A DNA stretch of 64,000 nt from Magnetospirillum sulfuroxidans. GTDB lineage: Bacteria; Pseudomonadota; Alphaproteobacteria; Rhodospirillales; Magnetospirillaceae. The notes beneath the pieces were generated by a model. It worked only from the letters and a program-made list of their open reading frames with translations, made no database searches and was not told where the DNA came from. A program made the translations under genes and the position numbers. Location of the stretch: positions 62,001 through 126,000 of the forward strand of contig NZ_JAGTUF010000002.1 in assembly GCF_018224925.1 (NCBI RefSeq), given 5' to 3'. Shown here in pieces: positions 35,389 to 46,854 of the stretch (position 1 is its first letter; each line of letters begins with the position of its first letter).

Positions 35389-35396
35389 AGAATATG
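35389..35396. repeat. Left 8-bp target-site duplication of the element
   Basis: AGAATATG directly outside the left terminal inverted repeat. It matches AAAATATG outside the right repeat at seven of eight positions, with the last six identical. This is the expected trace of transposition with an 8-bp staggered cut. Confidence 0.7.
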
Positions 35397-35421
35397 CGGA
35401 ATTATGTAGCAAACGCCACCA
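35397..35421 (+). repeat. Left terminal inverted repeat
   Basis: 25 bases starting CGGAATTATGTAGC and ending GCCACCA. It is the exact inverse complement of 46747-46771. Similarity stops abruptly after base 25 on the inside and before base 1 on the outside. Confidence 0.9.
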
Positions 35422-35489
35422 AACCCAATTCGTTTTGGGAAACTGGGCGCTTAAGCTCGGCTCCAGACTGATATGGAGCGGATCGAGCG

Positions 35490-35933
35490 ATGAGCCGGGC
35501 CAGCGTGGAAAGTGTGGTGAAAGTGCTTCTCCGGAAGCGGACAGTTCTCGCCAAAGCCGTTGCCCTGGCCGAGGCGGTCGTGGAGGTCAGGCGCCAGGAA
35601 GTGGCGCACCTCGATGCGACCATTCGACTTTTGACCACGGACACCCCTCCCGATAAGAAAAGGCCTGGGCGCCGGAGCGGCAGCCTTAGCCGCACCCTGG
35701 TCGGCATCCTCCGGTCAACCAGGCAGGCCCTGCCTATTCAGGCCATCGTCGAGAAATATCTCGCCGTCTCGGGCATGCCTGCCGACGATCGCTCAGCCCT
35801 CACCACCGCGATCCGGCGCTCCCTCATCAATCTGCGGAACCGGGGCGCCGTTACTACGGCGCCCGGCCCCAAGGGAGGTTACCTATGGCGCATCAACGCC
35901 GAGGTTTCCGAACTCGCCGCTGATACCCCCTGA
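35490..35933 (+). CDS. Coiled-coil/winged-helix protein at the left end of the element
   Basis: A 147-residue protein reading inward from the left repeat, starting 69 bases from it. Residues about 5-50 form a probable coiled coil (KRTVLAKAVALAEAVVEVRR, HLDATIRLL). After a basic linker (DKKRPGRRS), residues about 68-135 look like a winged-helix domain (ALPIQAIVEKYL, RRSLINLRNRGAVTTA, GYLWRI). The protein encoded at the other end has the same layout and matching key positions (KR, DA-RL, LR--GAV, W-R). This suggests DNA binding, perhaps of the element ends or in regulation. It overlaps the transposase tail-to-tail by 41 bases. Confidence 0.75.
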   Translation: MSRASVESVVKVLLRKRTVLAKAVALAEAVVEVRRQEVAHLDATIRLLTTDTPPDKKRPGRRSGSLSRTLVGILRSTRQALPIQAIVEKYLAVSGMPADDRSALTTAIRRSLINLRNRGAVTTAPGPKGGYLWRINAEVSELAADTP

Positions 35934-36876
35934 ACTCGGGATCTGGTCCGCAGTTGAGCGCCAAGTGCAGGATGAGCATCACCAATTCCAGCGCAGAAAG
36001 GCGGCGGTGATCCTCGCGAAAGGCCGCCTCCACAGCGTAGCGGTGCAGATGGTGGCCGGATATCCGGTGGTGCTGACCGCGCTCCAGTTTGCGAAGCCGA
36101 GAGAAGAAGCTTTCCGCCTGGTTGCTACAAGCAACCCCATCCGAATAAACCTCCTCGTGGTTGATGCGATAAATCTCGTGCGTGGCATGCAAATCGTTCC
36201 ACGAGGGCGCTTCATCGCCATAGCCGATAGTGCCTGGGCGCATTCGGCGCGCCAGGAACGGCACTCCTCCAGCCTCTGTCGGAGCAACGGTCACAATTGT
36301 CCGTCCCGTCGGCTTTCGCTCCCTGCCCACGATCACGACCCTGCGCTTTGGGCTCTTGTTTCTGGCCTTCCGGCGGTCTCGCCGGTTTTTGCGCCAATTG
36401 GCCTTGCGGACGTGACCGCCGATATAACAGCCGTCGAATTCGACCTCCTCTCCTTCACCGCCAATTTGGCGGTCGGAGCACTCGACCAAGAAGCTGTGCC
36501 GAAGCTTGTGGAATAGGGCAAACGTTGTTCGGTGATTGACGTCCAGTTGCCGCGACAGTTGCGCTGCCGACGTTCCTTTCGCTGCGGTTGCCCACAAGGT
36601 GACGACCACCAACAACTGGCGCAGTGATAGCTTTCGGCCATGAAAGGCCGTCCGGCTGGTCAGGCTAAAATTTCGAGCGCACCACTTGCATTTGAAGCGT
36701 TTGCGGGCATCCGGACCAGTAGCCGGCATATTGCAGTCAGGGCAGATCGCCGCCCCTTGGGTCGAAGGCCATCGTGCTCGGCAGAAGAGAGCGAAGATGT
36801 CGGCATCCGACATTTGCATGATGTGAAGCAGGCCAAATCCGCGGCTGGCCGCAGATAGCAAGAAATGGATCGACAT
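35893..36876 (-). CDS. IS1595-family transposase (ISXO2-like), copy 1
   Basis: A 327-residue transposase. The ATG at 36876 (MSIHFLLSAAS...) has GGGGA 6 bases upstream; an ORF extends to 36942 without support. The zinc ribbon is C45-x2-C48 ... C63-x2-C66. The DDE-type core has D149 (VEFDGCYIGGH), D221 (GYGDEAPSWND) and the N252/E255 motif (ACSNQAESFFSRLR), then HHRISGHHLHRYAVEAAFRE, all hallmarks of the family. It appears intact. It is the candidate enzyme for moving the whole element. No separate inverted repeats flank this gene, so it is probably not an independent nested IS. Confidence 0.9.
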   Translation of the reverse strand: MSIHFLLSAASRGFGLLHIMQMSDADIFALFCRARWPSTQGAAICPDCNMPATGPDARKRFKCKWCARNFSLTSRTAFHGRKLSLRQLLVVVTLWATAAKGTSAAQLSRQLDVNHRTTFALFHKLRHSFLVECSDRQIGGEGEEVEFDGCYIGGHVRKANWRKNRRDRRKARNKSPKRRVVIVGRERKPTGRTIVTVAPTEAGGVPFLARRMRPGTIGYGDEAPSWNDLHATHEIYRINHEEVYSDGVACSNQAESFFSRLRKLERGQHHRISGHHLHRYAVEAAFREDHRRLSALELVMLILHLALNCGPDPEFRGYQRRVRKPRR

Positions 36877-37606
36877 GAGTTTCCCCGTTTGCGCCCCGAA
36901 AGAGGGCGCAGCATGGTTGTGCTGGGCCGTGCGATCTGGCATGCTGCGAGGTGCGTATGCTCACGCATGCTCAGATTGTCGGTGTTGGCTTAGGCTGGCA
37001 GCGACATCCGCATCAAAGCCCCGCCGCGTCAACGGCGGGGTTTTTCGTTTCGATGGGGTCTCCGCGCCTCTATAAATGTCTCTGCGTGATAAGCGTGTCT
37101 ACATGCACAGAACCTCCATGGAGTAGGTTCGGCAAATATCCGTGACGAACCACCCCGTTGGCAATCCGAAAATGGAAGGCGGGGGCGTGGTGTGAGAAGG
37201 TGTCGTGTGCGAACAACGCCGCCGTTCCATTTCTCCATTACATCATTTTCACGCGACCACATTTTCTCCACTGAGGGTGGTGACTACAAAATTCGCAGTT
37301 TTCTGCGGTATTTGCACCCAGTGGTGCGGAGCTGCAATGTTTTGTCTGCGCGAATTGCGGCCCCTTCTTCCCGTTTTCTCCTCACCGCGCCCTGACAGCG
37401 TTGCCGTGCTCCGCCGAGTTGGCAGCCAGAGGGTCTTTAGGGAATGAGCTTCGGCCCGGTCTTCAGCCACACTCGGCGATACCGCCCCCATTCCAGGGCA
37501 ATGCCAATGGTGCAGCAGGGTGTCCTTCGAACCCAAGAACCCAAGGTAGCGGTCTGGACATCTGCTTCCCTCGCATGGAGACTGGCCGGATGAAGGGGAG
37601 GTGAAA
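36877..37606. other. 730-bp region without a convincing gene; contains an orphan terminator
   Basis: Only short ORFs without family resemblance occur on either strand. CCCCGCCG (37019-37026) pairs with CGGCGGGG (37033-37040), followed by TTTTT (37041-37045), a strong plus-strand terminator with no plus-strand gene before it. This could end a small RNA starting after about 36,900 or simply insulate the downstream genes. The right half (37.3-37.6 kb) leads into the Shine-Dalgarno of the next gene (AGGGGAGG). Confidence 0.5.
37019..37045 (+). terminator. Orphan intrinsic terminator inside the element
   Basis: A perfect 8-bp GC stem with a six-base loop and five T. There is no coding sequence upstream on the same strand, as the transposase gene is divergent. 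Confidence 0.75.
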
Positions 37607-38002
37607 ATGCCAATGGATGAGCAATGCCAACCCAGGCGTACAGCCATGACGCGCGAAGTCTGGATGGCGATTTGCCAAGCGCATCCGAGCAATACCGCGG
37701 CCCTCGAAGGAGAGGCGTGTCTATGCGACGGCGCATGGCCTGACGCGATGTCGGCCACCGTCCATTGGCAAGCCTGGCGGACGCTAAACGCCACTCGGAC
37801 AGACGCTCTGTCGCAACGCTTCGTCGTGGTTGCCGATCAAGCGTTGGCATTCCGCGCTACGCTGGCGCCAGAGCAGTACGTCTGGGCACCGGACGCCGCC
37901 GCACGCGTGCCCAAGCATTGGCGGAAGGCACACCCGGAGGTAGATGCGCTCGCGCGACGCCTTGAGGCGTCAGAAGCGCACATCGCTCCAGCATTTTCCT
38001 GA
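37607..38002 (+). CDS. Hypothetical cargo protein (131 residues), first of a pair
   Basis: Starts MPMDEQCQPRRTAMTREVW at 37607 with a strong Shine-Dalgarno (AGGGGAGG, 6 bases spacing). The sequence is Ala- and Trp-rich, with ACLCDGAWPDAMSATVHWQAW and PEQYVWAPDAAARVPKHWRKAHPEVDAL as landmarks (residues about 38-58 and about 90-115). No membrane segment, signal peptide or known motif. The next gene starts 20 bases later, so they are probably co-transcribed. I do not recognise a family. Confidence 0.65.
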   Translation: MPMDEQCQPRRTAMTREVWMAICQAHPSNTAALEGEACLCDGAWPDAMSATVHWQAWRTLNATRTDALSQRFVVVADQALAFRATLAPEQYVWAPDAAARVPKHWRKAHPEVDALARRLEASEAHIAPAFS

Positions 38003-38021
38003 ACAACGGCCAATAATAACC

Positions 38022-38846
38022 ATGGTTTCGGCTCCGCCCGTGGTCTCGACGATTGATTTATCCAAGCCCCAAACTTGGCCCTTTTCGATTTGCGCTCATT
38101 TCGATCGGTTCGGCGATGTCTACCGTGCCTGGGACGCTGGCCAGGGGAGCGCGGCATCTTTTGACCTGGCCGTCAGCGACCTAGTCGACCGGATGCAGCC
38201 CTTTTCCCTGAGGGGCTGGCATTGTACCCGCCTGACCGAGGACGAAATGGCCGAAATTCTAGCCAACGGCATGCGTCTGCCAAACCAGCTCTTTTTGCAC
38301 CAGCGGGTTGACCAGTTGGAAAGTGCCTGCCTGATATCGGCACAGACGGCCAAGCTTCTGAGGGAGTGCAACAGCGCTGCGGATTCCGGTCGGGCTGAAA
38401 TGCTGTGGTTTTGCTTCTTCCGCCCCGGCAAGGCTGGTGAAGGTGGGATCGGGAGATTTTTCAAACATTGGGGCGGCGAGGCCCTGTATGTGCACCACGA
38501 AGGCAATCTTTCCACTTCACCCGAGCTGCGCCGGATCGGCACCCCTTGCATCGTTGAAGCAGAGGTTCCGATTTCGTTTCTTAGATCCCAGACCAGCCTC
38601 GCTCTGAAACTGATCGAGCGGAAGCTGTGCAGTATCGGCCGAGCTGCCCGACGCGGGGTCGATCACGAAGGCGCCATCAACGTGCCGCTGCCGGCGGAGA
38701 ACATCCACCGTCTCATCACCTATCCACATTACGAGTTCCGGCGCATGACAGGGTGCGACAGGTGGCGCGAGCCAATCCTATTGGCTGACCGGGACGCCAA
38801 CCCAATGCGACCACTTCGTCGCAGGCTTGCCTCGTCAGAAGCATAG
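38022..38846 (+). CDS. Hypothetical cargo protein (274 residues), second of a pair
   Basis: I use the ATG at 38022 (MVSAPPVVSTIDLSKPQ...); an in-frame ATG at 37944, inside the preceding gene, follows GGAGG by only 3 bases. Notable blocks are FSLRGWHCTRLTEDEMAEIL, ILANGMRLP, MLWFCFFRPGKAGEGGIGRF, FKHWGGEALYVHHE, GTPCIVEAEVPISFL and FRRMTGCDRW. The H-C-T-R-L...EI...GM pattern followed by a Gly/Trp/His block faintly resembles ADP-ribosyltransferase-like toxins, but this is weak. No membrane segments. Position among the cargo genes suggests defence or toxin function; unproven. Confidence 0.65.
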   Translation: MVSAPPVVSTIDLSKPQTWPFSICAHFDRFGDVYRAWDAGQGSAASFDLAVSDLVDRMQPFSLRGWHCTRLTEDEMAEILANGMRLPNQLFLHQRVDQLESACLISAQTAKLLRECNSAADSGRAEMLWFCFFRPGKAGEGGIGRFFKHWGGEALYVHHEGNLSTSPELRRIGTPCIVEAEVPISFLRSQTSLALKLIERKLCSIGRAARRGVDHEGAINVPLPAENIHRLITYPHYEFRRMTGCDRWREPILLADRDANPMRPLRRRLASSEA

Positions 38847-38924
38847 GTCATCGCGTCGAGTATCGTGGGCAGCAGATCGGGAACCTCCGCTCCTACAGAA
38901 GGAGCCGGGATCGCGCGTCCGCAG

Positions 38925-39179
38925 CTATCGGTTCTCACTCAGCCGAAGCCGCGCACCTGGCCCCATCGTTTCGTCGGCATCGAGAAAGACGACGCCGGCA
39001 GCTTCCATGGCGACGCGCATGGCCAGGACGTTGTTGTAGGTCTGCGCCCCGCGCCGTTTCTCGAAGTTGCGGACGGTGCTTTCCCCTAGGTGCGCTTTCT
39101 CGGCAAGATCCCGTTGGGACCAGCCAAGCAACGCGCGCCCGGCAGCGGATTGTTCGATCGTCAATGGCCTATCAGTCAT
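38925..39179 (-). CDS. Xre-type helix-turn-helix repressor next to transposase 2
   Basis: An 84-residue regulator, MTDRPLTIEQSAAGRALLGW..., start at 39179; an ORF reaches 39449 but would overlap the divergent transposase. Helix-turn-helix at about 16-45 (SQRDLAEKAHLGESTVRNFE), then AMRVAMEAAGVVF, typical of small Xre regulators. It is divergent from transposase 2. The 117-base gap contains three copies of an AATAACGA-type element, so it probably represses both genes. Confidence 0.85.
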   Translation of the reverse strand: MTDRPLTIEQSAAGRALLGWSQRDLAEKAHLGESTVRNFEKRRGAQTYNNVLAMRVAMEAAGVVFLDADETMGPGARLRLSENR

Positions 39180-39197
39180 GCGGCATCTTAGACGGTG

Positions 39198-39214
39198 ATA
39201 ACGATTTTCGTCAA
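39198..39214. promoter_or_regulatory. Operator-like site 1 (repressor-proximal)
   Basis: ATAACGA-TTT-TCGTCAA, an imperfect copy of the dyad at 39264-39282, lying 19 bases before the repressor start. A suitable autoregulation site. Confidence 0.5.
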
Positions 39215-39230
39215 TGGTGCTCGAGATGCG

Positions 39231-39257
39231 TTGACCGCGCACGAATAACGCTATACA
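39231..39257 (+). promoter_or_regulatory. Candidate promoter of transposase 2
   Basis: TTGACC (39231-39236), a 15-base spacer and TATACA (39252-39257). A half-site AATAACG (39244-39250) lies between the two boxes, so a bound repressor would block polymerase. Confidence 0.45.
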
Positions 39258-39263
39258 CTTCCA

Positions 39264-39282
39264 AATAACGAAAATCGTTATT
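39264..39282. promoter_or_regulatory. Operator-like site 2 (transposase-proximal), perfect dyad
   Basis: AATAACGA-AAA-TCGTTATT, an 8-3-8 perfect dyad placed between the candidate -10 box and the transposase start at 39297. Likely the main operator of the divergent helix-turn-helix protein. Confidence 0.6.
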
Positions 39283-39296
39283 TTTGAGGTGCTCGA

Positions 39297-40304
39297 ATGC
39301 CCAGGCCGTCCGGCCAACACTTCCTTCTTTCCGCAAAGGCGCGCACGTTGTCGCTCGCCCAGGTGTTCGGACTGACCGACGCCGCTGCGGAGGAAGTGTT
39401 TCGCGGCATTCGCTGGGCCGATACGGAAGGCAATCCAGTATGTCCGCATTGCGGATGCCCGATCTGCTATGAATGTCGGCGTCCCAGCGGCGCCAGCCGG
39501 TGGCGCTGTAAGGCTTGCCGAAAGGACTTCTCCGTCACCTCCGGCACACTATTCGCTTCTCACAAGCTGCCGCTCCGCATCTACCTAGCGGCGATAGTGA
39601 TCTTTGTGAACGAGGTGAAAGGAAAGTCCGCACTGGCCTTGGGGCGCGACCTGGGTGTCCAGTATAAGACGGCCTTCGTCCTGGCCCACAAGCTGCGCGA
39701 AGCCATGGCGATCGAGGCTCGTGAGAATCGCCTCGGTGGCGAGGGCACAGTAACCGAGATTGATGGCGCTTACTTCGGTGGCCATGTCCGACCGGAAAAC
39801 CTTAAGAAGGATCGCAAGGATCTGCGGCGGACGGAGAACAGGTCTGGGAAGCGCCGCTGCGTCGTCGTCGTTCGTGAGCGCCAAGGCCGCAGCCTAGCCC
39901 GGAGCTTTGCCACCGAAGATGCCGCCACCGGCTTCATCCGTGCCCATGTCGCCAGAGGCGGCGTCATGCATGCCGACGAAGCAAGTTCTTGGAACCGGTT
40001 GCATGCGCATTACGACCTGCGTCGGGTCAACCACATTCACGGCTACAGTATCGACGGTGCCTGCACCAATCAGGCCGAAAGCTGGTTTTCCCGCCTGCGC
40101 CGAGCAGAGATCGGTATCCACCACCATATCAGCGGCGACTACCTCGATCGCTATGCCCAGGAAGCGGCCTTCCGTGAAGACAACCGTCGGCAGCCGAACG
40201 GCGAACTCTTCCGCTTGGTCACCAGCTTGGTCTGCGCCACCAAGCCCTCTATCGACTTCTGCGGCTATTGGCAGCGAGCTCAACTGGCCGGGAAAGGGGC
40301 GTAA
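39297..40304 (+). CDS. IS1595-family transposase, copy 2
   Basis: A 335-residue transposase with GAGGTG 6 bases before the ATG. The Cys-rich zinc-binding region has C49-x2-C52, C57, C60 and C71-x2-C74. The DDE-type core has D156 (VTEIDGAYFGGHV), D227 (VMHADEASSWN) and N258/E261 (GACTNQAESWFSRLR), then GIHHHISGDYLDRYAQEAAF. It is clearly related to copy 1 but diverged, so not a recent duplicate. Controlled expression by a divergent repressor is unusual for a simple IS. It is followed 2 bases later by a small gene. Confidence 0.9.
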   Translation: MPRPSGQHFLLSAKARTLSLAQVFGLTDAAAEEVFRGIRWADTEGNPVCPHCGCPICYECRRPSGASRWRCKACRKDFSVTSGTLFASHKLPLRIYLAAIVIFVNEVKGKSALALGRDLGVQYKTAFVLAHKLREAMAIEARENRLGGEGTVTEIDGAYFGGHVRPENLKKDRKDLRRTENRSGKRRCVVVVRERQGRSLARSFATEDAATGFIRAHVARGGVMHADEASSWNRLHAHYDLRRVNHIHGYSIDGACTNQAESWFSRLRRAEIGIHHHISGDYLDRYAQEAAFREDNRRQPNGELFRLVTSLVCATKPSIDFCGYWQRAQLAGKGA

Positions 40305-40306
40305 AG

Positions 40307-40516
40307 ATGCCTGAACCACTTCGCCACAACGGCTTCTTGTGCGTCACCGACATCAACGGTATCCGCCACGCCCTGAGGCTCAGTTCCATTTGTGGGCTGC
40401 GCGATGCCGATAGTGACCGCACCGAGGCGATCATCGTCGTCAATGGTGGCCGGGATGCGATCATTGTCGCACATGACCTCGATCAGCTATTTGGCGCGAT
40501 CGCCAGTCCGCAGTGA
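40307..40516 (+). CDS. Small protein coupled to transposase 2
   Basis: A 69-residue ORF, MPEPLRHNGFLCVTDINGIR..., starting 2 bases after the transposase stop with GGGGC just upstream. It is predicted to be a small alpha/beta protein (ALRLSSICGLRDAD, TEAIIVVNGG, IIVAHDLDQLFGAI). No family recognised. Tight coupling suggests it works with the transposase or its repressor. Confidence 0.6.
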   Translation: MPEPLRHNGFLCVTDINGIRHALRLSSICGLRDADSDRTEAIIVVNGGRDAIIVAHDLDQLFGAIASPQ

Positions 40517-40688
40517 TTGCAATGGCGATCGGAGTTGTACGCCCCCCCCAAAAAATCCGAAGCAAGAAAGCCCGTCGAGTATCTTGACGAACGCACACAA
40601 TGGATGATGATTAAAGTGATGGTGCAATCAATACACGGCCTCATTGCCGCCTACAGCACCAAAATATCTTTGATCTACTAGGTGAGAA

Positions 40689-41768
40689 ATGCCTGATATA
40701 GAAGATAATGACAATATATTCGAAAGAATAATTAATAATATCATTCAATTTCATGCATACATTGAGCCCGCGCTAAGGATGGCGACGATGGCGTGGGCAT
40801 TTTCCCTGACAAGCATACTCTACATTATTATCATAGCATTCTACTGCAATGATCGGGAAATACCATTTTTTGATTTCGCCGCCACGACAGGGGTATACAT
40901 ATGGATTGTCGGCGCCTTGGTCGTGTTCTTTTCCGCGATCCTATCAGTGTACAGTCTTGCCCCGGTCTTTATGAAAGTCGCAATTCTTAAACGCGTACAG
41001 ATTAGCAATGCGACTGCAATAGGGTTAACGTTGGCCCCTGCTGTTATCGCCATCAGCATTATATTCATGAGAACGCTGTTTCTGAAAGACAGGGAGTTCA
41101 TATTTGCTGCTACAATCATTGTAGCAACATCAATATTTACCTGTATTGTCTGCTTCTATCGCTATCTAACAGCTCCACTAGTTGAAGGTGCGACGAGTCG
41201 GGCTGGAGATGCAGTGCTTGCGGCAAACCTATTTGTAGTCCCTGTATTTATGCTGGTATCGAAGCTATCTCTGATGGGAATCCACCACCTGGAATCATCA
41301 GAGGGTTTACAGAACATCGATTTTTCCAGTTATGCATGGATAATATATGCCGCCTCTTTTCTCGTTATTCCCATTATAGTTGTTGTATTTTTCAATGCCG
41401 CACCGGGATTAAAGACGCGGAAAGGCATTTTTTTATTCGGTGCGCTCGCCATTGTAGCTCCGCTCATGCTAGCTCCATTTGCTATATTTGATAGAGTCCT
41501 GACCTTCTTGAGTGTCGGTGGCGATGTGCCTTTCGCATTTTCTCTTCAAAAGGGGGAGAATGTGTGGGGGCAGCAAGAAGTGCGTGGCTATATGCGATTT
41601 ATAACCACTGACAACGTCCATATCTCTTGCGGGAAGGGAACCCCTGTGGCGACCCTAAATTTGCGCCATGTAACGGGTATTCGGCGGATATTGGATGGTG
41701 AGGATGTCAACTGTAGTGCGATCTACCCGGCTGGGCAAAAGAACAGAGCGGACGCTCAGTCTCCGTAA
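40689..41768 (+). CDS. AT-rich polytopic membrane protein of unknown function
   Basis: A 359-residue protein, MPDIEDNDNIFERIINN..., with about eight hydrophobic segments between residues 30 and 280 (for example SILYIIIIAFYC, IWIVGALVVFFSAIL, AAPFAIFDRVLTF-type stretches). A soluble C-terminal 80 residues contain HISCGKGTPVATLNLRH. Codon use is AT-rich (ATA, ATT, AAT frequent), unlike flanking genes, which points to recent acquisition. It lies beside the CBASS genes, convergent with the Cap15-like effector. No family recognised; an accessory membrane role is possible. Confidence 0.75.
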   Translation: MPDIEDNDNIFERIINNIIQFHAYIEPALRMATMAWAFSLTSILYIIIIAFYCNDREIPFFDFAATTGVYIWIVGALVVFFSAILSVYSLAPVFMKVAILKRVQISNATAIGLTLAPAVIAISIIFMRTLFLKDREFIFAATIIVATSIFTCIVCFYRYLTAPLVEGATSRAGDAVLAANLFVVPVFMLVSKLSLMGIHHLESSEGLQNIDFSSYAWIIYAASFLVIPIIVVVFFNAAPGLKTRKGIFLFGALAIVAPLMLAPFAIFDRVLTFLSVGGDVPFAFSLQKGENVWGQQEVRGYMRFITTDNVHISCGKGTPVATLNLRHVTGIRRILDGEDVNCSAIYPAGQKNRADAQSP

Positions 41769-41928
41769 ATATAGCGTTTTCTGCTTGCTCGTCAGGGCAC
41801 AGACCTTTGGCCGCAACTTATCCCGGCGCGATATCCTCACCCATTATGACGATCTTACTACCTGTTGCTGAACTGTCGGGGCCTCGTCACTAGCGCAGTC
41901 TCGAATCCGTTAGCTGCACTGTTACGCT

Positions 41929-42624
41929 TCAAATCGCACGAACGAAACGAAGCGAGGCAGCAGTATTCATGCCCCGCCGCCACATGCGGTTAGACCACAT
42001 AGTTCCTTCCATCACGTTGTAGCCAGGCTGAATTTCCAATCTGGCGGCCCCATGAAACATGGGGGCGTCGCTAACGACATCAGTCTCGTTCCTCTGGCTG
42101 AACATGTAGCTCATCGCGGGGCGCGCATTCTCGCCCCCTCTGATCGGTTCCACGAGGAAGGTGTCTGAGTCCTTGATGGGAGTGTCCTGATTGGGGTTCC
42201 AAAGATGAATGTGGATGTGCCCCCAAGTCTGAGTTATTCGTGCACGCATCTTTAGCGGAGTGAGGGAAGGCAGTTCTTCGCCGTCGCAAACCCGAAAATC
42301 AATCGATGGCTCCTTCCCGCAAGCAGATTTCAACAGCCTCTCGATGCGCGGCCAATTGCTGCAAATCTCCACTTCCCATTCGCCATTCAGATCCGGAAAG
42401 ACCCAATCATTCATTTTTGGGAATGCTTTCCAGAATAAGCGCCAGATTGGGGTGACAAAGAAGATCGCGATGACAACCTGGACCCAAAACACAACTTTTC
42501 CGAATGACGGCTCCACACCGATTTCGGGAAGATATTCGTCCAGCAAACCGAATGCGAAATTCGTCGCGAGCACGACATAGCTGATCGCCGTGATCCAAAA
42601 TTTAGGCCCAAAAATCCGATACAT
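41929..42624 (-). CDS. cap15: Cap15-like CBASS effector (two membrane helices plus beta-barrel)
   Basis: A 231-residue membrane protein. Two membrane helices at about 9-28 and 43-65 are followed from about residue 74 by a beta-rich domain opening with DWVFPDLNGEWEVEI, which matches the SMODS-associated 2TM beta-strand-rich effectors named Cap15. In known systems, cyclic-dinucleotide binding to the barrel drives oligomerisation and disrupts the inner membrane, killing the infected cell. Here it is transcribed divergently from the CD-NTase rather than inside its operon. Identification rests on topology and the LNGxW start of the barrel. Confidence 0.82.
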   Translation of the reverse strand: MYRIFGPKFWITAISYVVLATNFAFGLLDEYLPEIGVEPSFGKVVFWVQVVIAIFFVTPIWRLFWKAFPKMNDWVFPDLNGEWEVEICSNWPRIERLLKSACGKEPSIDFRVCDGEELPSLTPLKMRARITQTWGHIHIHLWNPNQDTPIKDSDTFLVEPIRGGENARPAMSYMFSQRNETDVVSDAPMFHGAARLEIQPGYNVMEGTMWSNRMWRRGMNTAASLRFVRAI

Positions 42625-42740
42625 TCGTCACCATCGATGCATGAGCTTCTTGGCGCCGCGTTCCAGCTGATATGCGGACACGGCTCCTATCTTCTAGCGC
42701 GGGGCGCGATTCGCATTCAATGTTTTTACGTCAATCCGGC

Positions 42741-42768
42741 TTGCGGCTGGAAAATAAGCCACTATATC
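42741..42768 (+). promoter_or_regulatory. Candidate promoter of the CBASS operon
   Basis: TTGCGG (42741-42746), a 16-base spacer and TATATC (42763-42768), 56 bases before the CD-NTase start, within the 199-base divergent gap shared with the effector gene. Confidence 0.4.
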
Positions 42769-42823
42769 GTCAGGACATGCCCAATATGTGGTAGAACCCC
42801 ATGACTTGGAGGGTCGCTTTCCT

Positions 42824-44023
42824 ATGGCCGCATCCGTAAACGCCCACTCTTTGTTCGCGGGTCGAGATCCGGCCGCGTTCCTGAAAGCCATCACCCCCTC
42901 TGATGCCCAGCGTAGGCAGTTGTTAGAGGCGCGTAAAACCATCCGCGCCCACCTCAAGGCCGGTTTCCATATGCTGAGCCAGGATGTGACCACCCAGCAA
43001 CAATTGGGATTGATCGACCGGCAGACCATGAAGCCGTTGCGGCTCAGCCCCAAATTCGCCTCTCAGGGCTCGTTCGTCTACGGCACCTTGAACAATCCCG
43101 CGCATCAGCCGCCGCAGGAGATGGATCTCGACGACGGCATGTATTTGCCGTTAGAGGTTATTGACAAGGTACCGCCAAAGGTTGCCAGCAACCTGCTGTT
43201 CAAGGTGGTCGGTGACATTTTGGCGCATTTGTGCTCCCTGAATCCAGGCTGGGAAATGGAGCGTAAATCGACGTGTTGCCGTGTTTCCCTGCCATTTGGC
43301 GCCCACATTGACGTTCCGCTGTACGCCTATCCCGATGAGTACGAGGAGTACTTGGAAAAGGCGGCCGTCGCCTTTGCCGAGTCGTTTTTTGCCCAGGATT
43401 CTGTTATGCGCCAGAAACCATTGGAGAGCGACAAGGTCTGGCTTGCGCACAGGGACAACGGCTGGCAACAATCCGACCCTAAGAAGATCAAGGACTGGTT
43501 TGAAGAGAAGGTGGACCTGCACGGCGAGCAGTTGCGTCGGGTTTGTCGTTATCTGAAGGTTTGGCGCGATCAGCACTTCCCGACTGGTGGTGTGCCCTCG
43601 ATTGCCCTGATGGCCCATACTGTTGCCATCTTCGATACCACTTGGATGGATCCTGATCGGGACGACCTCGCATTGTTGCGCGTGGCTGAGCAATTGCCGG
43701 GCTTACTGACGGAGAAGGTCGCCAATCCCACCATCGACGTGCCCGAAGGTGATCCGAGCAAGTATCTGGATGGAGGTCTGGAGCCCAAGGATCGGCGTGA
43801 TGTCGTCCAAAAGGCCTGGGATCTGAAGCAATTTCTTTCCGAAGCGCTTGAGGACCATTGCCAGCGCCAACGGGCGCTGAAGAACCTTCGGCATGCGTTC
43901 GGCCCACGTATGCCTGATCGCCCCGACCTCCTCCACGTAGATGCGGCTGAAGCCGTGGTTACCAGCGTGGAGCCACGTGTTCTGGCACCGGCAATCATCC
44001 CCAACCACTCGCATTCCGCCTGA
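42824..44023 (+). CDS. cdnA: CBASS CD-NTase, DncV-like (clade A)
   Basis: A 399-residue nucleotidyltransferase that makes a cyclic di- or trinucleotide second messenger on phage infection. I chose the ATG at 42824 (MAASVNAHS...), preceded by GGAGGG; a GTG at 42788 is an alternative. The catalytic set is QGSFVYGT (G82-S83), D101 and D103 in EMDLDDGMYLPLEV, and D163 in AHIDVPLYAYP. The spacing D101-D163 equals that of D131-D193 in Vibrio DncV, and GWEMERKSTCCRVSL matches the DncV region between them. The C-terminus ends HSHSA, the end on which Cap2 would act. It overlaps cap2 by one base. Confidence 0.92.
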   Translation: MAASVNAHSLFAGRDPAAFLKAITPSDAQRRQLLEARKTIRAHLKAGFHMLSQDVTTQQQLGLIDRQTMKPLRLSPKFASQGSFVYGTLNNPAHQPPQEMDLDDGMYLPLEVIDKVPPKVASNLLFKVVGDILAHLCSLNPGWEMERKSTCCRVSLPFGAHIDVPLYAYPDEYEEYLEKAAVAFAESFFAQDSVMRQKPLESDKVWLAHRDNGWQQSDPKKIKDWFEEKVDLHGEQLRRVCRYLKVWRDQHFPTGGVPSIALMAHTVAIFDTTWMDPDRDDLALLRVAEQLPGLLTEKVANPTIDVPEGDPSKYLDGGLEPKDRRDVVQKAWDLKQFLSEALEDHCQRQRALKNLRHAFGPRMPDRPDLLHVDAAEAVVTSVEPRVLAPAIIPNHSHSA

Positions 44024-45708
44024 TGGCCGATTGGCATCGAGAGGTCCATCGGGCGCTCGTCGAGGCCGGATATAAACCGGTCTCGCATGCCAAGGCTCGG
44101 CTCGCGTACCAGGGGGCTATGCGCGCGGGCTCATTTGACGTCCCGATTCTCCTGCAACTTGACGAAGATATGGTCCGACGACCATCAATCACGTTGCTGG
44201 ACCGGCCTGGGGTTCTCTCAAATCCGCTGCCACATATCGATCCCGACAACGGCCTATGCTACCTAGACCCACAACTTTCAAGGATGGACCCGCTCAATCC
44301 GATGGGTATGGTGGGGGCCTGCCTGAACAAGGCGCAGGCGCTGTTGGAAAAGCTCGTCTCCGGGCAAAACGACGCGGAGGCAGAACGCGAGTTTCCATTG
44401 CTTTGGGACCCGGACTACCCAGCATTCAGCACACTCCCGCAGGGATTTTCCGGAGCGGCGACACTCTTTAATTTTGAGGGAAAAAACACCATTAGTGTGC
44501 TTGTGGCCTCAGAGGACCAAGCGCAGGATTATGGGCGGGCTTGGCCAGCTGGCGGGGTAGAAATAAAATCAATTTGGCCTGCTTATGTATTGAACTGGCG
44601 CCATCCGGTAAAACCGACCCAACCTTGGCCGGTCAAGACAGTCCAGAATTTTTTGGATTTTCTAGCATGGATCTCTCCTGTTATTGCCGCAGAGGCAAGA
44701 AAACACATTGATCTCCGAAACGGTCATAAGTTTTTGTTAGTCTTGGATGCGCCAAACGCGTGTGTCGGGGGCTTTTTTGAGGTGCCAAAACAATATCGGC
44801 GCCCAGAGTTCAAGACGCGGCAACAAGCGCTTCTACACGCATTCGATCGAGAAGATTGGCCCCTGAAGAGAATGACGTTTCAAAAGCTCGACCAGGACCA
44901 CCTCGTCCGACGAAATCTCGGGGAAAACGGCCTCGCCGGCAAGAAGGTGATGCTAATCGGTTGCGGCACGATCGGCGGCTTTCTCGCCGAAATGCTGCTC
45001 AAAATCGGCGCCGGAATTGATGGGGGGCGATTGACGCTGGTGGACAGCGACGTGCTCATGCCGGGAAACTTGGGGCGCCATATCCTTGGTCTGCGTTACC
45101 TCATGCAAAATAAGGCTGCTGCATGTAAGGAATATCTCGGCCAACCACTCGGACCGGCCCTGGTGGATGTCTGGACCGAGGATGTGCGAAATCTTCGCAA
45201 GGATATGTGGCGCTACGACCTAATCATCGAGGCAACCGGTGATGAAGCTATTTCAGAATGGCTGAATGCCTGGAGACTGTCGCAGTTGCCATCATCCAGT
45301 AAGTTCCCGCCAATTCTCCATAGTTGGATTGAAGGGCCAGGAGCGGCTGGCGTCGCATTTCTGAACGCTTGGCCAGAAACCGGATGTTACCGGTGCCTCA
45401 AGACGCCAGATGGCACGCCTCGCTTTCAGGTTCTTTTCAAGGCGGCCCCCGATGCGGGCGTGGTTGTAGCCTCGTGCGCAGAAGCTTCCTACGTTCGATA
45501 TCCTGTTTCAGCATCAACACAGGCGGCGGCTCTAGCGCTTCAAAGCGTTATCGATTGGCTGCGGGACGGAACCAGACGGCCATTCAGACATAATCAAATT
45601 GATTCGGATTTCGCTCGTGCCAGCGGATCCCATAACGTCGCCCACCAGAAAGGCTGTCGCGCATGCTCGAATCAATCCACGCCCCAACAGGCGACGAGCG
45701 CGGCCTAA
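44023..45708 (+). CDS. cap2: CBASS Cap2, fused E2/E1 ubiquitin-like conjugating enzyme
   Basis: A 561-residue protein. The N-terminal E2-like domain (about 1-140) has the candidate catalytic C79 in DPDNGLCYLDP. The C-terminal E1-like adenylation domain (about 300-540) has the nucleotide loop LIGCGTIGGFLAEM (311-324) and the acidic D341/D343 after it. Cysteines C455, C458 (TGCYRCLK) and C485 (VASCAEASY) are candidates for the E1 thioester and zinc sites. Cap2 ligates the C-terminus of the CD-NTase to cellular targets and primes it. The start overlaps cdnA by one base (TGATG), and the 3' end overlaps cap3 by 46 bases. Confidence 0.92.
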   Translation: MADWHREVHRALVEAGYKPVSHAKARLAYQGAMRAGSFDVPILLQLDEDMVRRPSITLLDRPGVLSNPLPHIDPDNGLCYLDPQLSRMDPLNPMGMVGACLNKAQALLEKLVSGQNDAEAEREFPLLWDPDYPAFSTLPQGFSGAATLFNFEGKNTISVLVASEDQAQDYGRAWPAGGVEIKSIWPAYVLNWRHPVKPTQPWPVKTVQNFLDFLAWISPVIAAEARKHIDLRNGHKFLLVLDAPNACVGGFFEVPKQYRRPEFKTRQQALLHAFDREDWPLKRMTFQKLDQDHLVRRNLGENGLAGKKVMLIGCGTIGGFLAEMLLKIGAGIDGGRLTLVDSDVLMPGNLGRHILGLRYLMQNKAAACKEYLGQPLGPALVDVWTEDVRNLRKDMWRYDLIIEATGDEAISEWLNAWRLSQLPSSSKFPPILHSWIEGPGAAGVAFLNAWPETGCYRCLKTPDGTPRFQVLFKAAPDAGVVVASCAEASYVRYPVSASTQAAALALQSVIDWLRDGTRRPFRHNQIDSDFARASGSHNVAHQKGCRACSNQSTPQQATSAA

Positions 45709-46190
45709 TTCTTCTGCGGCCCCGTGTGTTCCAACTCATGATGGCCTTTCGCCAGACCGGACCTGTGGCTACTGAAGCAGGGGGGGTGCTGATTGGCAGC
45801 TTGCGCGGGCCTCATATCGAGGTCATTGACTGTACCCAACCCATGCAAAACGACCTAAGGCGCAGCCATGCGTTCGACCGTCGAGATGCGGGGCACGTGG
45901 CCGCGATACACGCGGCTATGAAGGGCAGTGCAGGAACCATTGGATACGTTGGAGAGTGGCACACACATCCTGAACCCGTGCCGTCCCCTTCGGGGCAGGA
46001 TAGCGCAAATTGGCGCAATCTCGTCCGTCAGACGAAACATTCATTGGCTTTCGTGATCTTGGGAACGGATGGGCTGTTCATGAATTCACTGGACGAACGC
46101 GGCAAAGGTTCTGCCGGCTGGAAGTTGTGCTTTCCCGAGAGCTGCAATGAGGTGCTACGCAAAAATCCGACAATTAACCTCACCCCCTAA
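45663..46190 (+). CDS. cap3: CBASS Cap3, JAMM/JAB-type isopeptidase
   Basis: A 175-residue metalloprotease. The JAMM motif is complete: E38 (TEAGGVLIG), H100-x-H102 (GEWHTHPEP), S110 and D113. In type II CBASS, Cap3 cleaves CD-NTase conjugates made by Cap2 and so limits activation. It starts inside the end of cap2 in another frame and ends the operon; no terminator is obvious. Confidence 0.92.
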   Translation: MLESIHAPTGDERGLILLRPRVFQLMMAFRQTGPVATEAGGVLIGSLRGPHIEVIDCTQPMQNDLRRSHAFDRRDAGHVAAIHAAMKGSAGTIGYVGEWHTHPEPVPSPSGQDSANWRNLVRQTKHSLAFVILGTDGLFMNSLDERGKGSAGWKLCFPESCNEVLRKNPTINLTP

Positions 46191-46239
46191 GCCCACCCCA
46201 TGTGATCATCCTCCCGTTTTTTTTGCTCACGAGCACCGC

Positions 46240-46701
46240 TCAAGCGGCACCGTCATTTTCTGGTTCATCATCGAGGATTAGGCGCCATTTAACGTTCCGG
46301 GCGTGCCCGATCTTTTCCACCGCTCCAATTTTGCGAAGATCGTGGAGGGAAACCAGGATGCGCTTAACGAAATCCAATCGCTGCCGGCGATCTGCCTTAG
46401 GGTCCAGCCCCTTGTCCAGCATCGCCCGCTCCGCGATGTCATTGGCACAGACGATCTCCCTTTCGCGGAGCATGTCGTAGCAGCGCCTCGTGATCTCGTT
46501 CCGGCCGAAATAGGTTGATCGTTTTGGTATTCGACCCTTGGTCGGAATGTCTTCGGGTAACAGGCCGAACAGTCGCAGTACGGCATCGACGTGGAATAGA
46601 TCCGCCTGAAGGCGATCCAGTTCCTGCTGGAGGTCTATGATCCGGCCAGCGATTGCCGACCGCTTGTCGCGTAGGCTGGAGAGAGTGGTGGTGTCGCTCA
46701 T
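46240..46701 (-). CDS. Coiled-coil/winged-helix protein at the right end of the element
   Basis: A 153-residue protein reading inward from the right repeat, 46 bases from it. The N-terminal coiled coil spans about 5-45 (KRSAIAGRIIDLQQELDRLQ, HVDAVLRLF). A linker with basic residues (TKGRIPKRS) precedes a winged-helix-like domain (about 70-140; RRCYDMLREREIVCANDIAE, VKRILVSLHDLRKIGAVEK, VKWRL). Same layout and matching positions as the left-end protein, so they are paralogues. Similar proteins are, from memory, common beside ISXO2-like transposases in Alphaproteobacteria; that would need checking. A role in transposition or in silencing the element is inferred. Confidence 0.78.
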   Translation of the reverse strand: MSDTTTLSSLRDKRSAIAGRIIDLQQELDRLQADLFHVDAVLRLFGLLPEDIPTKGRIPKRSTYFGRNEITRRCYDMLREREIVCANDIAERAMLDKGLDPKADRRQRLDFVKRILVSLHDLRKIGAVEKIGHARNVKWRLILDDEPENDGAA

Positions 46702-46746
46702 GTCCCCGAATCTACGGGAAACCGGCTCCGCCCGTCATTTTCCGGG

Positions 46747-46771
46747 TGGTGGCGTTTGCTACATAATTCCG
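46747..46771 (-). repeat. Right terminal inverted repeat
   Basis: Exact inverse complement of 35397-35421 over 25 bases, beginning TGGTGGCGTTTGC on the plus strand and ending ATAATTCCG. Confidence 0.9.
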
Positions 46772-46779
46772 AAAATATG
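46772..46779. repeat. Right 8-bp target-site duplication
   Basis: AAAATATG, one mismatch from the left copy AGAATATG. Its last two bases are the complement of the CA of the tRNA-Arg CCA end, so the tRNA is left intact. Confidence 0.7.
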
Positions 46780-46854
46780 GCGCGCCCTGTTGGATTCGAA
46801 CCAACGACCTGCCGCTTAGAAGGCGGCTGCTCTATCCAACTGAGCTAAGGGCGC
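46778..46854 (-). tRNA. tRNA-Arg (anticodon UCU)
   Basis: A 77-base gene on the minus strand with full cloverleaf: acceptor GCGCCCT/AGGGCGC, D arm GCTC...GAGC, anticodon stem GCCGC/GCGGC with loop CTTCTAA (UCU), T arm GTTGG-TTCGAAT-CCAAC, discriminator G and encoded CCA. The mobile element abuts its 3' end. Confidence 0.95.

What the first reader, a model, noticed from the sequence alone, without database searches (positions are those of the whole stretch)
38925..40516. Repressor-controlled transposase module with operators and a coupled small protein
A divergent Xre protein, an 8-3-8 dyad (39264-39282), a weaker copy (39198-39214) and a half-site inside the candidate promoter form a phage-like switch in front of transposase 2. 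A 69-residue gene follows 2 bases after it. IS elements seldom have such regulation.
Basis: partly seen in the sequence, partly recalled or inferred. Interest (0 to 1): 0.6.

Follow-up and report, generated by a model that had tools for sequence, protein, structure and literature searches.

The report
Repressor-gated transposon carrying CBASS defence
The sequence looks like the control centre of an 11.4-kb jumping DNA element that carries an anti-phage defence system, with its jumping enzyme behind a dedicated repressor switch; related elements keep the layout but differ in repressor, binding sites and cargo.

Summary
The repeat pattern occurs only at these two places in the 4.13-Mb genome; four sister genomes have close-set flanks without the element. 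Of 95 distinct loci (window included), 80 have a divergent regulator: DUF6471-type 73, Xre 5, a third kind 2. Six of seven Xre-transposase pairs have a dyad at the same place. The exact trio is not conserved: the closest sister (84% identical transposase, with the small gene) has a DUF6471-type gene, and DNA similarity starts at the transposase start codon, so the control cassette was exchanged. The regulator is adjacent in 56 of 59 cargo elements and 0 of 6 minimal IS. Best reading: a cargo transposon held in phage-like repression. Repression and mobility of this copy were not tested. New variant of a known kind (IS1595-family tIS).

The parts
35389..35396 (.). left target-site duplication AGAATATG
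   Evidence: 7 of 8 equal to the right copy
35397..35421 (.). left terminal inverted repeat, 25 bp
   Evidence: 23-base pattern at <=2 mismatches occurs only twice in the 4.13-Mb genome
35490..35933 (+). C1-type accessory gene (147 aa), inward from left end
   Evidence: C1 family in 58 of 65 elements
35893..36942 (-). TNP1, second IS1595-family transposase, 349 aa, 44% identical to TNP2; no recognised regulator beside it
37601..38002 (+). 133-aa ORF shared with sister element L045 (61%)
37944..38846 (+). 300-aa ORF of unknown function (cargo)
   Evidence: no Pfam, NCBIfam, PADLOC or PHROGs hit at the thresholds used
38925..39179 (-). Xre repressor candidate, 84 aa
39185..39214 (-). promoter-like pair for xre, overlapped by operator 1
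39197..39215 (.). operator 1 (dyad, 3 mismatches)
   Evidence: a second, often imperfect dyad further up in the other Xre loci, by eye
39231..39259 (+). promoter-like pair for TNP2 (TTGACC-17-TACACT)
39244..39250 (+). operator half-site AATAACG next to the -10
   Evidence: AACG half-site at the matching place in 4 of 5 Xre loci, by eye
39264..39282 (.). operator 2, exact 8-3-8 dyad over the predicted start of transcription
39297..40304 (+). TNP2, IS1595-family transposase, 335 aa
40307..40516 (+). SMALL, 69 aa, predicted beta sheet + helix, unknown function
40689..41768 (+). 359-aa ORF of unknown function, hydrophobic segments by eye (cargo)
41929..42624 (-). CBASS 2TM effector
   Evidence: PADLOC PDLC00680 E=1.7e-82
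42788..44023 (+). CBASS CD-NTase, DncV-like
44023..45708 (+). CBASS E1-E2 protein
45663..46190 (+). CBASS JAB protein
46240..46701 (-). C1-type accessory gene (153 aa), inward from right end
   Evidence: AF2 pLDDT 92, long helix then winged-helix-like part
46747..46771 (.). right terminal inverted repeat, 25 bp, perfect complement of the left
46772..46779 (.). right target-site duplication AAAATATG
46778..46854 (-). tRNA-Arg(tct) next to the insertion site (host gene; the called end overlaps the duplication by 2 bases)

Best explanation
The region is the regulatory core of an 11,375-bp IS1595-family cargo transposon (35397-46771) that carries a type II CBASS. Xre binds operator 1 (over its own promoter) and operator 2 (over the start of TNP2 transcription), so it shuts off the transposase and limits its own level, as a phage repressor does. 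When repression lapses, for example on entry into a cell without Xre, TNP2 and the small protein behind it would be made and the element could move by its 25-bp ends, making 8-bp target duplications. The C1 proteins at both ends are probably end-binding or target-choice factors. Repressor, operators and promoter form one replaceable cassette. Shown by sequence: ends, near-perfect duplication, single copy, sister sites without the element, conserved operator layout, cassette difference between sisters. Inferred: binding, repression, derepression, transposition, and the roles of C1 and SMALL.
For: Perfect 25-bp inverted repeats 11.3 kb apart; two genome-wide hits to the repeat pattern at <=2 mismatches, 0 in the reversed control. 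8-bp flanking repeats: 7/8 in the window; of 70 distinct loci with a repeat pair (window included) 63 match 8/8, against 22 of 4830 cross-pairings. Sister sites: flanks 61-130 bp apart in 4 of 15 relatives' loci. Divergent regulator in 80 of 95 distinct loci. Dyad test: 28 of 80 regulated loci at p<=0.05 against 0 of 8 minimal IS and 5 of 160 intragenic windows. Core AACGA-N3-TCGTT exact in 4 of 7 Xre-transposase pairs (window, L050, L162, L101) and one base off in L143. DUF6471-type loci have a different motif, TATCATAT-like, in 42 of 73 against 0 of 73, 0 of 73 and 0 of 13 in controls (the variants counted were chosen after looking at the sequences). In L126 and L138 the DUF6471-type gene lies 2.2 and 2.5 kb from the transposase start, with copies of that motif (<=1 mismatch) at both promoters. 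Window against L045: similarity begins at 39297, the TNP2 start codon. Regulator in 56 of 59 cargo elements, 0 of 6 minimal IS, Fisher p=1e-6. Recent movement of a minimal relative: 1,596 bp identical in two plasmids with different duplications.
Against: No binding, expression or transposition was measured. The window's duplications differ at one base and no near-identical copy of this element was found, so this copy may be old or no longer mobile. 52 of 80 regulated loci were not significant singly in the dyad test, among them both loci with the third regulator type; an Xre-transposase pair in L098 shows no dyad. Three cargo elements (L126, L138, L157) lack an adjacent regulator. Of the five Xre loci only the window is among the 65 complete elements. 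The loci are near relatives (80 best of 562 matches, plus 20 of the best hits), not a random sample, and related elements are not independent in the Fisher and dyad counts. The repeat pair of each locus was chosen with a score that rewards matching duplications (median 2, at most 8 candidate pairs per kept locus), so 63 of 70 is slightly favoured.
Confidence: 0.8

Rival explanations
1. Immobile relic: two broken IS fragments and an unrelated CBASS operon lie side by side, and the Xre gene is an independent neighbour.
For: Single copy in the genome; duplication 7/8; TNP1 and TNP2 only 44% identical; no inner inverted repeat at <=2 mismatches.
Against: Perfect outer repeats; both transposases have open frames and keep acidic residues that are invariant in the 17 aligned sequences (D156, D227, E261 of TNP2; that these are the catalytic ones is inferred); the layout with outer C1 genes, TNP1, TNP2 and SMALL recurs in L045 with different cargo and an 8/8 duplication.
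Confidence: 0.12
2. Classical composite transposon: two complete IS copies flank and move the CBASS.
For: A C1-transposase pair at the left end resembles a minimal IS; a C1 gene lies at the right end.
Against: Only the outermost repeats were found at <=2 mismatches; TNP2 is internal and regulated, with cargo between it and its C1; 62 of the 65 elements have one such transposase only.
Confidence: 0.08
3. Xre is an activator or only self-regulating, or it serves the CBASS rather than the transposase.
For: Operator 1 overlaps the xre promoter; Xre proteins can control neighbouring defence genes (general knowledge).
Against: Operator 2 lies over the predicted start of TNP2 transcription, a repressing position; the same layout is found in Xre loci in which none of the four CBASS proteins gave a tblastn hit at 1e-3.
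Confidence: 0.12
4. Toxin-antitoxin-like module: Xre with TNP2/SMALL maintains the element by killing cells that lose it.
For: Xre scores weakly against antitoxin models (TIGR03070 E=9e-6, 25.5 bits against a cutoff of 71.65).
Against: TNP2 is a full-length transposase in an element with ends and duplications; SMALL was found beside a transposase only in the window and L045/L083.
Confidence: 0.04

Closest known systems
IS1595 family, especially tIS elements with passenger genes (ISNha5)
   Same: Transposase domains, 8-bp duplications, passenger genes including a transcription regulator in ISNha5 (passage of PMC11891212, citing Siguier 2009, which was not read; family features from passages of PMC8101967)
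   Different: Here the regulator is divergent, has its own operators, comes in three kinds and goes with cargo; CBASS cargo, two transposases, 11.4 kb. ISNha5 itself was not compared, so it may share some of this.
Minimal IS1595-type IS of the same clade (L085, L090, L094, L095, L122, L132; Rhodovastum atsumiense plasmids)
   Same: Similar repeats, transposase and C1-like gene
   Different: 1.6 kb, no regulator, no cargo
Tn7-like transposons with defence cargo
   Same: Transposons that carry diverse defence systems (title and start of abstract of PMC8649781 in the listing)
   Different: Unrelated transposase and targeting machinery (general knowledge)
Temperate phage repressor switch
   Same: Works like it: divergent small HTH protein, paired operator-like dyads, predicted autoregulation
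   Different: Controls a transposase; a recalled comparison, not a membership claim
tISCpe8 / MTnSag1 and ISApl4-Tn7560 (IS1595-family elements with cargo)
   Same: IS1595 transposase moving passenger genes; about 25-bp repeats in the first two (passages of PMC5704250, and PMC12561309)
   Different: Those carry resistance genes or are mobilizable; no relaxase turned up among the window proteins scanned, but none was specifically sought

Membership tests
IS1595 family | DDE_Tnp_IS1595 domain and N-terminal zinc ribbon | tested here: met
   PF12762, PF12760 and NF033547 above cutoffs for TNP1 and TNP2
IS1595 family | terminal inverted repeats | tested here: met
   25 bp perfect
IS1595 family | 8-bp target duplication | tested here: met
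   7/8 in window; 63 of 70 loci 8/8
IS1595 family | demonstrated transposition | not testable with these tools
   Indirect only: identical minimal copies with different duplications
ISNha5 / tIS group | passenger genes including a transcription regulator | tested here: met
   definition from a passage of PMC11891212
ISNha5 / tIS group | sequence similarity to ISNha5 | not tested
   ISNha5 sequence not at hand; a length range of 3.45-7.9 kb for the group is recalled, not from a call
Composite transposon | two complete flanking IS with inner and outer repeats | tested here: not met
   Only outer repeats at <=2 mismatches
Type II CBASS | CD-NTase, E1-E2, JAB and effector genes | tested here: met
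Xre/Cro-like repressor switch | HTH_3 protein divergent to the target gene | tested here: met
Xre/Cro-like repressor switch | operator-like dyads in the shared intergenic region | tested here: met
   exception L098
Xre/Cro-like repressor switch | repression on binding | not testable with these tools
   needs footprint or reporter

The most novel reading that the evidence does not exclude
Alphaproteobacteria hold a large family of 'lysogeny-like' cargo transposons: IS1595-type elements whose transposase is silenced by an element-borne repressor that is swapped, with its operators, as one cassette. Swapping would change immunity groups, so that a resident element represses an incoming one with the same repressor but not one with another, as with phages. 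These elements spread defence systems (CBASS, restriction-modification, BstA and others) and often land in natural-transformation genes (dprA, comM), which would protect them from being removed by transformation.
Probability: 0.4. Interest if true: 0.8.

Novelty: new variant of a known kind. Interest (0 to 1): 0.63.

Why it matters
Defence genes move a great deal, but their vehicles are often unclear. Here exact ends and target duplications are given for one vehicle that carries CBASS and for 58 cargo-bearing relatives. The family is also a natural experiment in regulation: minimal IS without a regulator, cargo elements with one, and sister elements that differ in the whole control cassette up to the transposase start codon. 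Two questions become directly testable: does carrying cargo select for repression of the transposase, and do exchangeable repressors give transposons phage-like immunity groups?

Tried and rejected
Stationary, host-adopted transposase without ends: entertained when a first search found no convincing repeats around the regulated transposases (output partly cut); dropped when a motif scan found the ends about 0.5-8 kb away.

Conserved trio as such: rejected. SMALL as an obligatory transposase partner: weakened, since L065 has SMALL between perfect ends without a transposase hit. Fold searches of SMALL and C1 gave no PDB match at E<=0.001; many of C1's top-ranked entries are winged-helix proteins (my reading of the names).

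Phage origin: phage records gave 4 matches to TNP2, at 24.8-30.0% identity.

Cargo as always defence: not supported. Of 14 elements whose cargo I picked for single scanning, mostly large proteins, 12 had at least one PADLOC hit at <=1e-3, two of these weak (L051, L062); L049 and L146 had none. Of the 86 other cargo ORFs of 150 aa or more I scanned 73 as a group: 94 PADLOC families had hits, none matched more than one member, and the tool shows neither all families nor the number of members hit; 13 ORFs were not scanned. CBASS proteins gave no tblastn hit in any of 108 other loci. Cargo ORFs come from a mechanical longest-ORF rule, and some will be false.

Rows dropped: six duplicate loci (L083, L084, L112, L151, L153, L160) are out of the counts; partial copies L075-L082 were fetched and screened but not counted; L063 and L064 were too short for the tree. 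Elements with under 7/8 duplications are out of the anatomy table, so L050 (6/8, Ns in its flank) and L143, L150, L162 (no usable pair) are absent there. Second transposases in L089, L098, L101, L124, L137 and L144 were not classified, apart from the Xre pairs of L098 and L101 found late. The label DUF6471-type rests on a profile grown from one seed; one member was checked by Pfam (L049).

Sister-site check: 30 relatives were searched with the right flank and loci of 15 were compared: 4 had the left flank 61-130 bp away (G007, G008, G011, G012), 2 about 0.4 and 0.6 kb away (G009, G010), 9 showed no left-flank match. My notebook entry lists six as empty sites; only the four are clear.

Target genes: Pfam checked L104 (DprA), L123 and L108 (glycosyltransferase 2), L052 (Mg chelatase, the ComM family) and L114 (no family); the others were assigned by clustering of translated junctions and by eye from junction DNA. 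No test against random insertion was made.

Tree: quick method, no bootstrap, with long-branch warnings.

Literature: ten searches of an open-access library. DUF6471 is in no paper there. CBASS with transposon and IS1595 gave one paper, on Xylella, seen only as a listing. One search was useless because 'tis' matched 'tissue'. Papers seen as passages: PMC11891212, PMC8101967, PMC5704250, PMC3281130, PMC12561309, PMC4774983; none was read whole.

Full report
What was reported is there. The Xre gene, the exact 8-3-8 dyad at 39264-39282, the weaker dyad, the half-site within a promoter-like pair, the IS1595-family transposase TNP2 and the 69-aa gene two bases behind it all check out. The dyad pattern is far above chance in the window (3 hits at up to 3 mismatches against 0.07 expected).

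A motif found in relatives led to a perfect 25-bp inverted repeat at 35397-35421 and 46747-46771. Outside it lie AGAATATG and AAAATATG. The repeat pattern occurs in the whole genome only at these two places at up to 2 mismatches. The 11,375-bp element sits beside tRNA-Arg(tct). Of 15 relatives' loci compared, four have the two flanks 61-130 bp apart, two 0.4-0.6 kb apart, and nine show no left flank.

Inside are, from the left: a C1-type gene, TNP1 in the opposite direction, two ORFs, Xre, TNP2, SMALL, a 359-aa ORF, a type II CBASS (2TM effector, DncV-like CD-NTase, E1-E2, JAB), and a second C1 gene facing inward at the right end. C1 is predicted with high confidence as a long helix followed by a winged-helix-like part (pLDDT 92, pTM 0.64); SMALL as a small beta sheet with a C-terminal helix (pLDDT 94). 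Neither has a significant PDB match.

Relatives. Twenty loci from related genomes (hits, regions), the best 80 of 562 matches in genome contigs, six of them duplicates, and the window give 95 distinct loci. Eighty have a recognised regulator divergent to the transposase: 73 DUF6471-type, 5 Xre, 2 of a third kind; Pfam confirms DUF6471 (PF20075) for the one member tested and names nothing for the third kind. Fifteen have none: nine IS-like loci (L046, L047, L085, L086, L090, L094, L095, L122, L132), two cut by contig ends (L059, L063), and L126, L138, L157 and L161. A late check found two more Xre-transposase pairs at second transposases, in L098 and L101.

Ends and duplications. Of 70 distinct loci with a repeat pair, 63 have 8/8 flanking duplications and 2 have 7/8; pairing ends of different loci gives 8/8 in 22 of 4830. 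Pairs were picked with a score that includes the duplication, among a median of 2 candidates. The 65 elements with at least 7/8 are 6 minimal IS of about 1.6 kb (transposase and C1) and 59 larger ones of 2.8-15.2 kb, median 3.7 kb. The regulator is adjacent in 56 of 59 large ones and 0 of 6 minimal ones (Fisher p=1e-6; related elements are not independent). C1 is found in 58 of 65.

Operators. Regulated loci have significant dyads in the 115 bp before the transposase in 28 of 80, against 0 of 8 minimal IS and 5 of 160 intragenic windows; 52 of 80 are not significant singly. The five Xre loci of the main set each have one 7-34 bp before the transposase (individual p 0.000-0.057) and, by eye, a second, often imperfect one further up; four have an AACG half-site next to a -10-like sequence. 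The L101 pair has the same dyad (p=0.017), the L098 pair has none. The core AACGA-N3-TCGTT is exact in the window, L050, L162 and L101, one base off in L143, and different in L150, whose Xre is the least similar of those aligned (33% identity). DUF6471-type loci have another motif, TATCATAT-like, in 42 of 73 and in none of three control sets (variants chosen after inspection). In L126 and L138 the DUF6471-type gene lies next to C1 at the right end, and copies of the motif stand both there and at the transposase, which ties motif to regulator.

Exchange. On the transposase tree the Xre label needs at least four separate changes (quick method). The window (Xre) and L045 (DUF6471-type) are sisters at 84% transposase identity. 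Their DNA similarity runs from 39297, the TNP2 start codon, to 40493 near the end of SMALL, so the whole control cassette differs while the operon is shared. Cargo differs too: L045 carries DUF5131/PDC-M30-type genes and an SMC-like ATPase.

Cargo. PADLOC or Pfam name a NotI-like endonuclease with a cytosine methylase (L048), type IIG enzymes (L055, L089), a cytosine methylase with a PD-Lambda-5-like protein (L060), BstA (L102), PD-T4-5 (L114), PDC-S31 (L056) and a methylase with a weak endonuclease-like domain (L137). These were picked mainly for size; in the 73 further cargo ORFs scanned as a group no defence family recurs. CBASS itself was not found in the other loci.

Targets. Translated junctions and junction DNA group 28 of 65 elements into four genes: 14 in a family 2 glycosyltransferase, 8 in dprA, 3 in a ComM-like gene and 3 in one unknown gene (five junction proteins checked by Pfam). 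L065, without a transposase hit, is also in the ComM-like gene. Insertion into competence genes is described for other mobile elements (passages of PMC4774983).

Mechanism. The best reading is repression of TNP2 and of xre itself by Xre, with derepression on loss of repressor. Everything about binding, repression and movement of this copy is inference; the only direct sign of recent movement is a minimal relative, 1,596 bp identical in two plasmids with different duplications.

Known or new. Passenger genes, including a transcription regulator in ISNha5, are known in IS1595-family tIS elements (passage of PMC11891212; the 2009 paper it cites was not read). Defence cargo is known in Tn7-like transposons (start of abstract, PMC8649781). 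In ten searches of the open-access library I saw no paper on CBASS in such elements, on DUF6471, or on exchangeable repressor-operator cassettes in them; subscription papers are mostly missing there. Hence: new variant of a known kind.

Noticed in passing
L091, L102, L104, L110, L116, L126, L129, L138; L052, L053, L119, L065: Elements sit inside dprA (8) and a ComM-like gene (3 plus L065), in both orientations for dprA, as if competence genes were preferred targets.
   Followed up: partly
L089, L092, L097, L098, L100, L108, L121, L123, L124, L133, L137, L142, L144, L147: Fourteen elements sit in a family 2 glycosyltransferase gene, at recurrent positions.
   Followed up: partly
L065:2804-8471: A 5.7-kb element with perfect 23-bp ends and 8-bp duplication, C1-like and SMALL genes but no transposase hit: possibly a non-autonomous relative.
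   Followed up: partly
L126, L138: DUF6471-type regulator at the right end, divergent to C1, with its motif at both promoters.
   Followed up: yes
L098:2325-3581, L101:2043-3280: Second transposases with a divergent Xre; L101 has the same dyad core as the window, L098 has no dyad by the test used.
   Followed up: partly
L102:4717-5643 and 19 more (cluster C3): A family of about 310-aa proteins, many with an N-terminal hydrophobic segment by eye, fills the left cargo slot in 20 of 65 elements; no Pfam match for L102 and no PADLOC match for L102 and L049.
   Followed up: partly
window 37944-38846 and 40689-41768: Two cargo ORFs of unknown function inside the element.
   Followed up: no
L048, L064: A third regulator type, without a Pfam match in L048, divergent to the transposase.
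   Followed up: no
L181, L182 (Rhodovastum atsumiense plasmids): Identical 1,596-bp minimal IS copies with different 8-bp duplications: recently active.
   Followed up: yes
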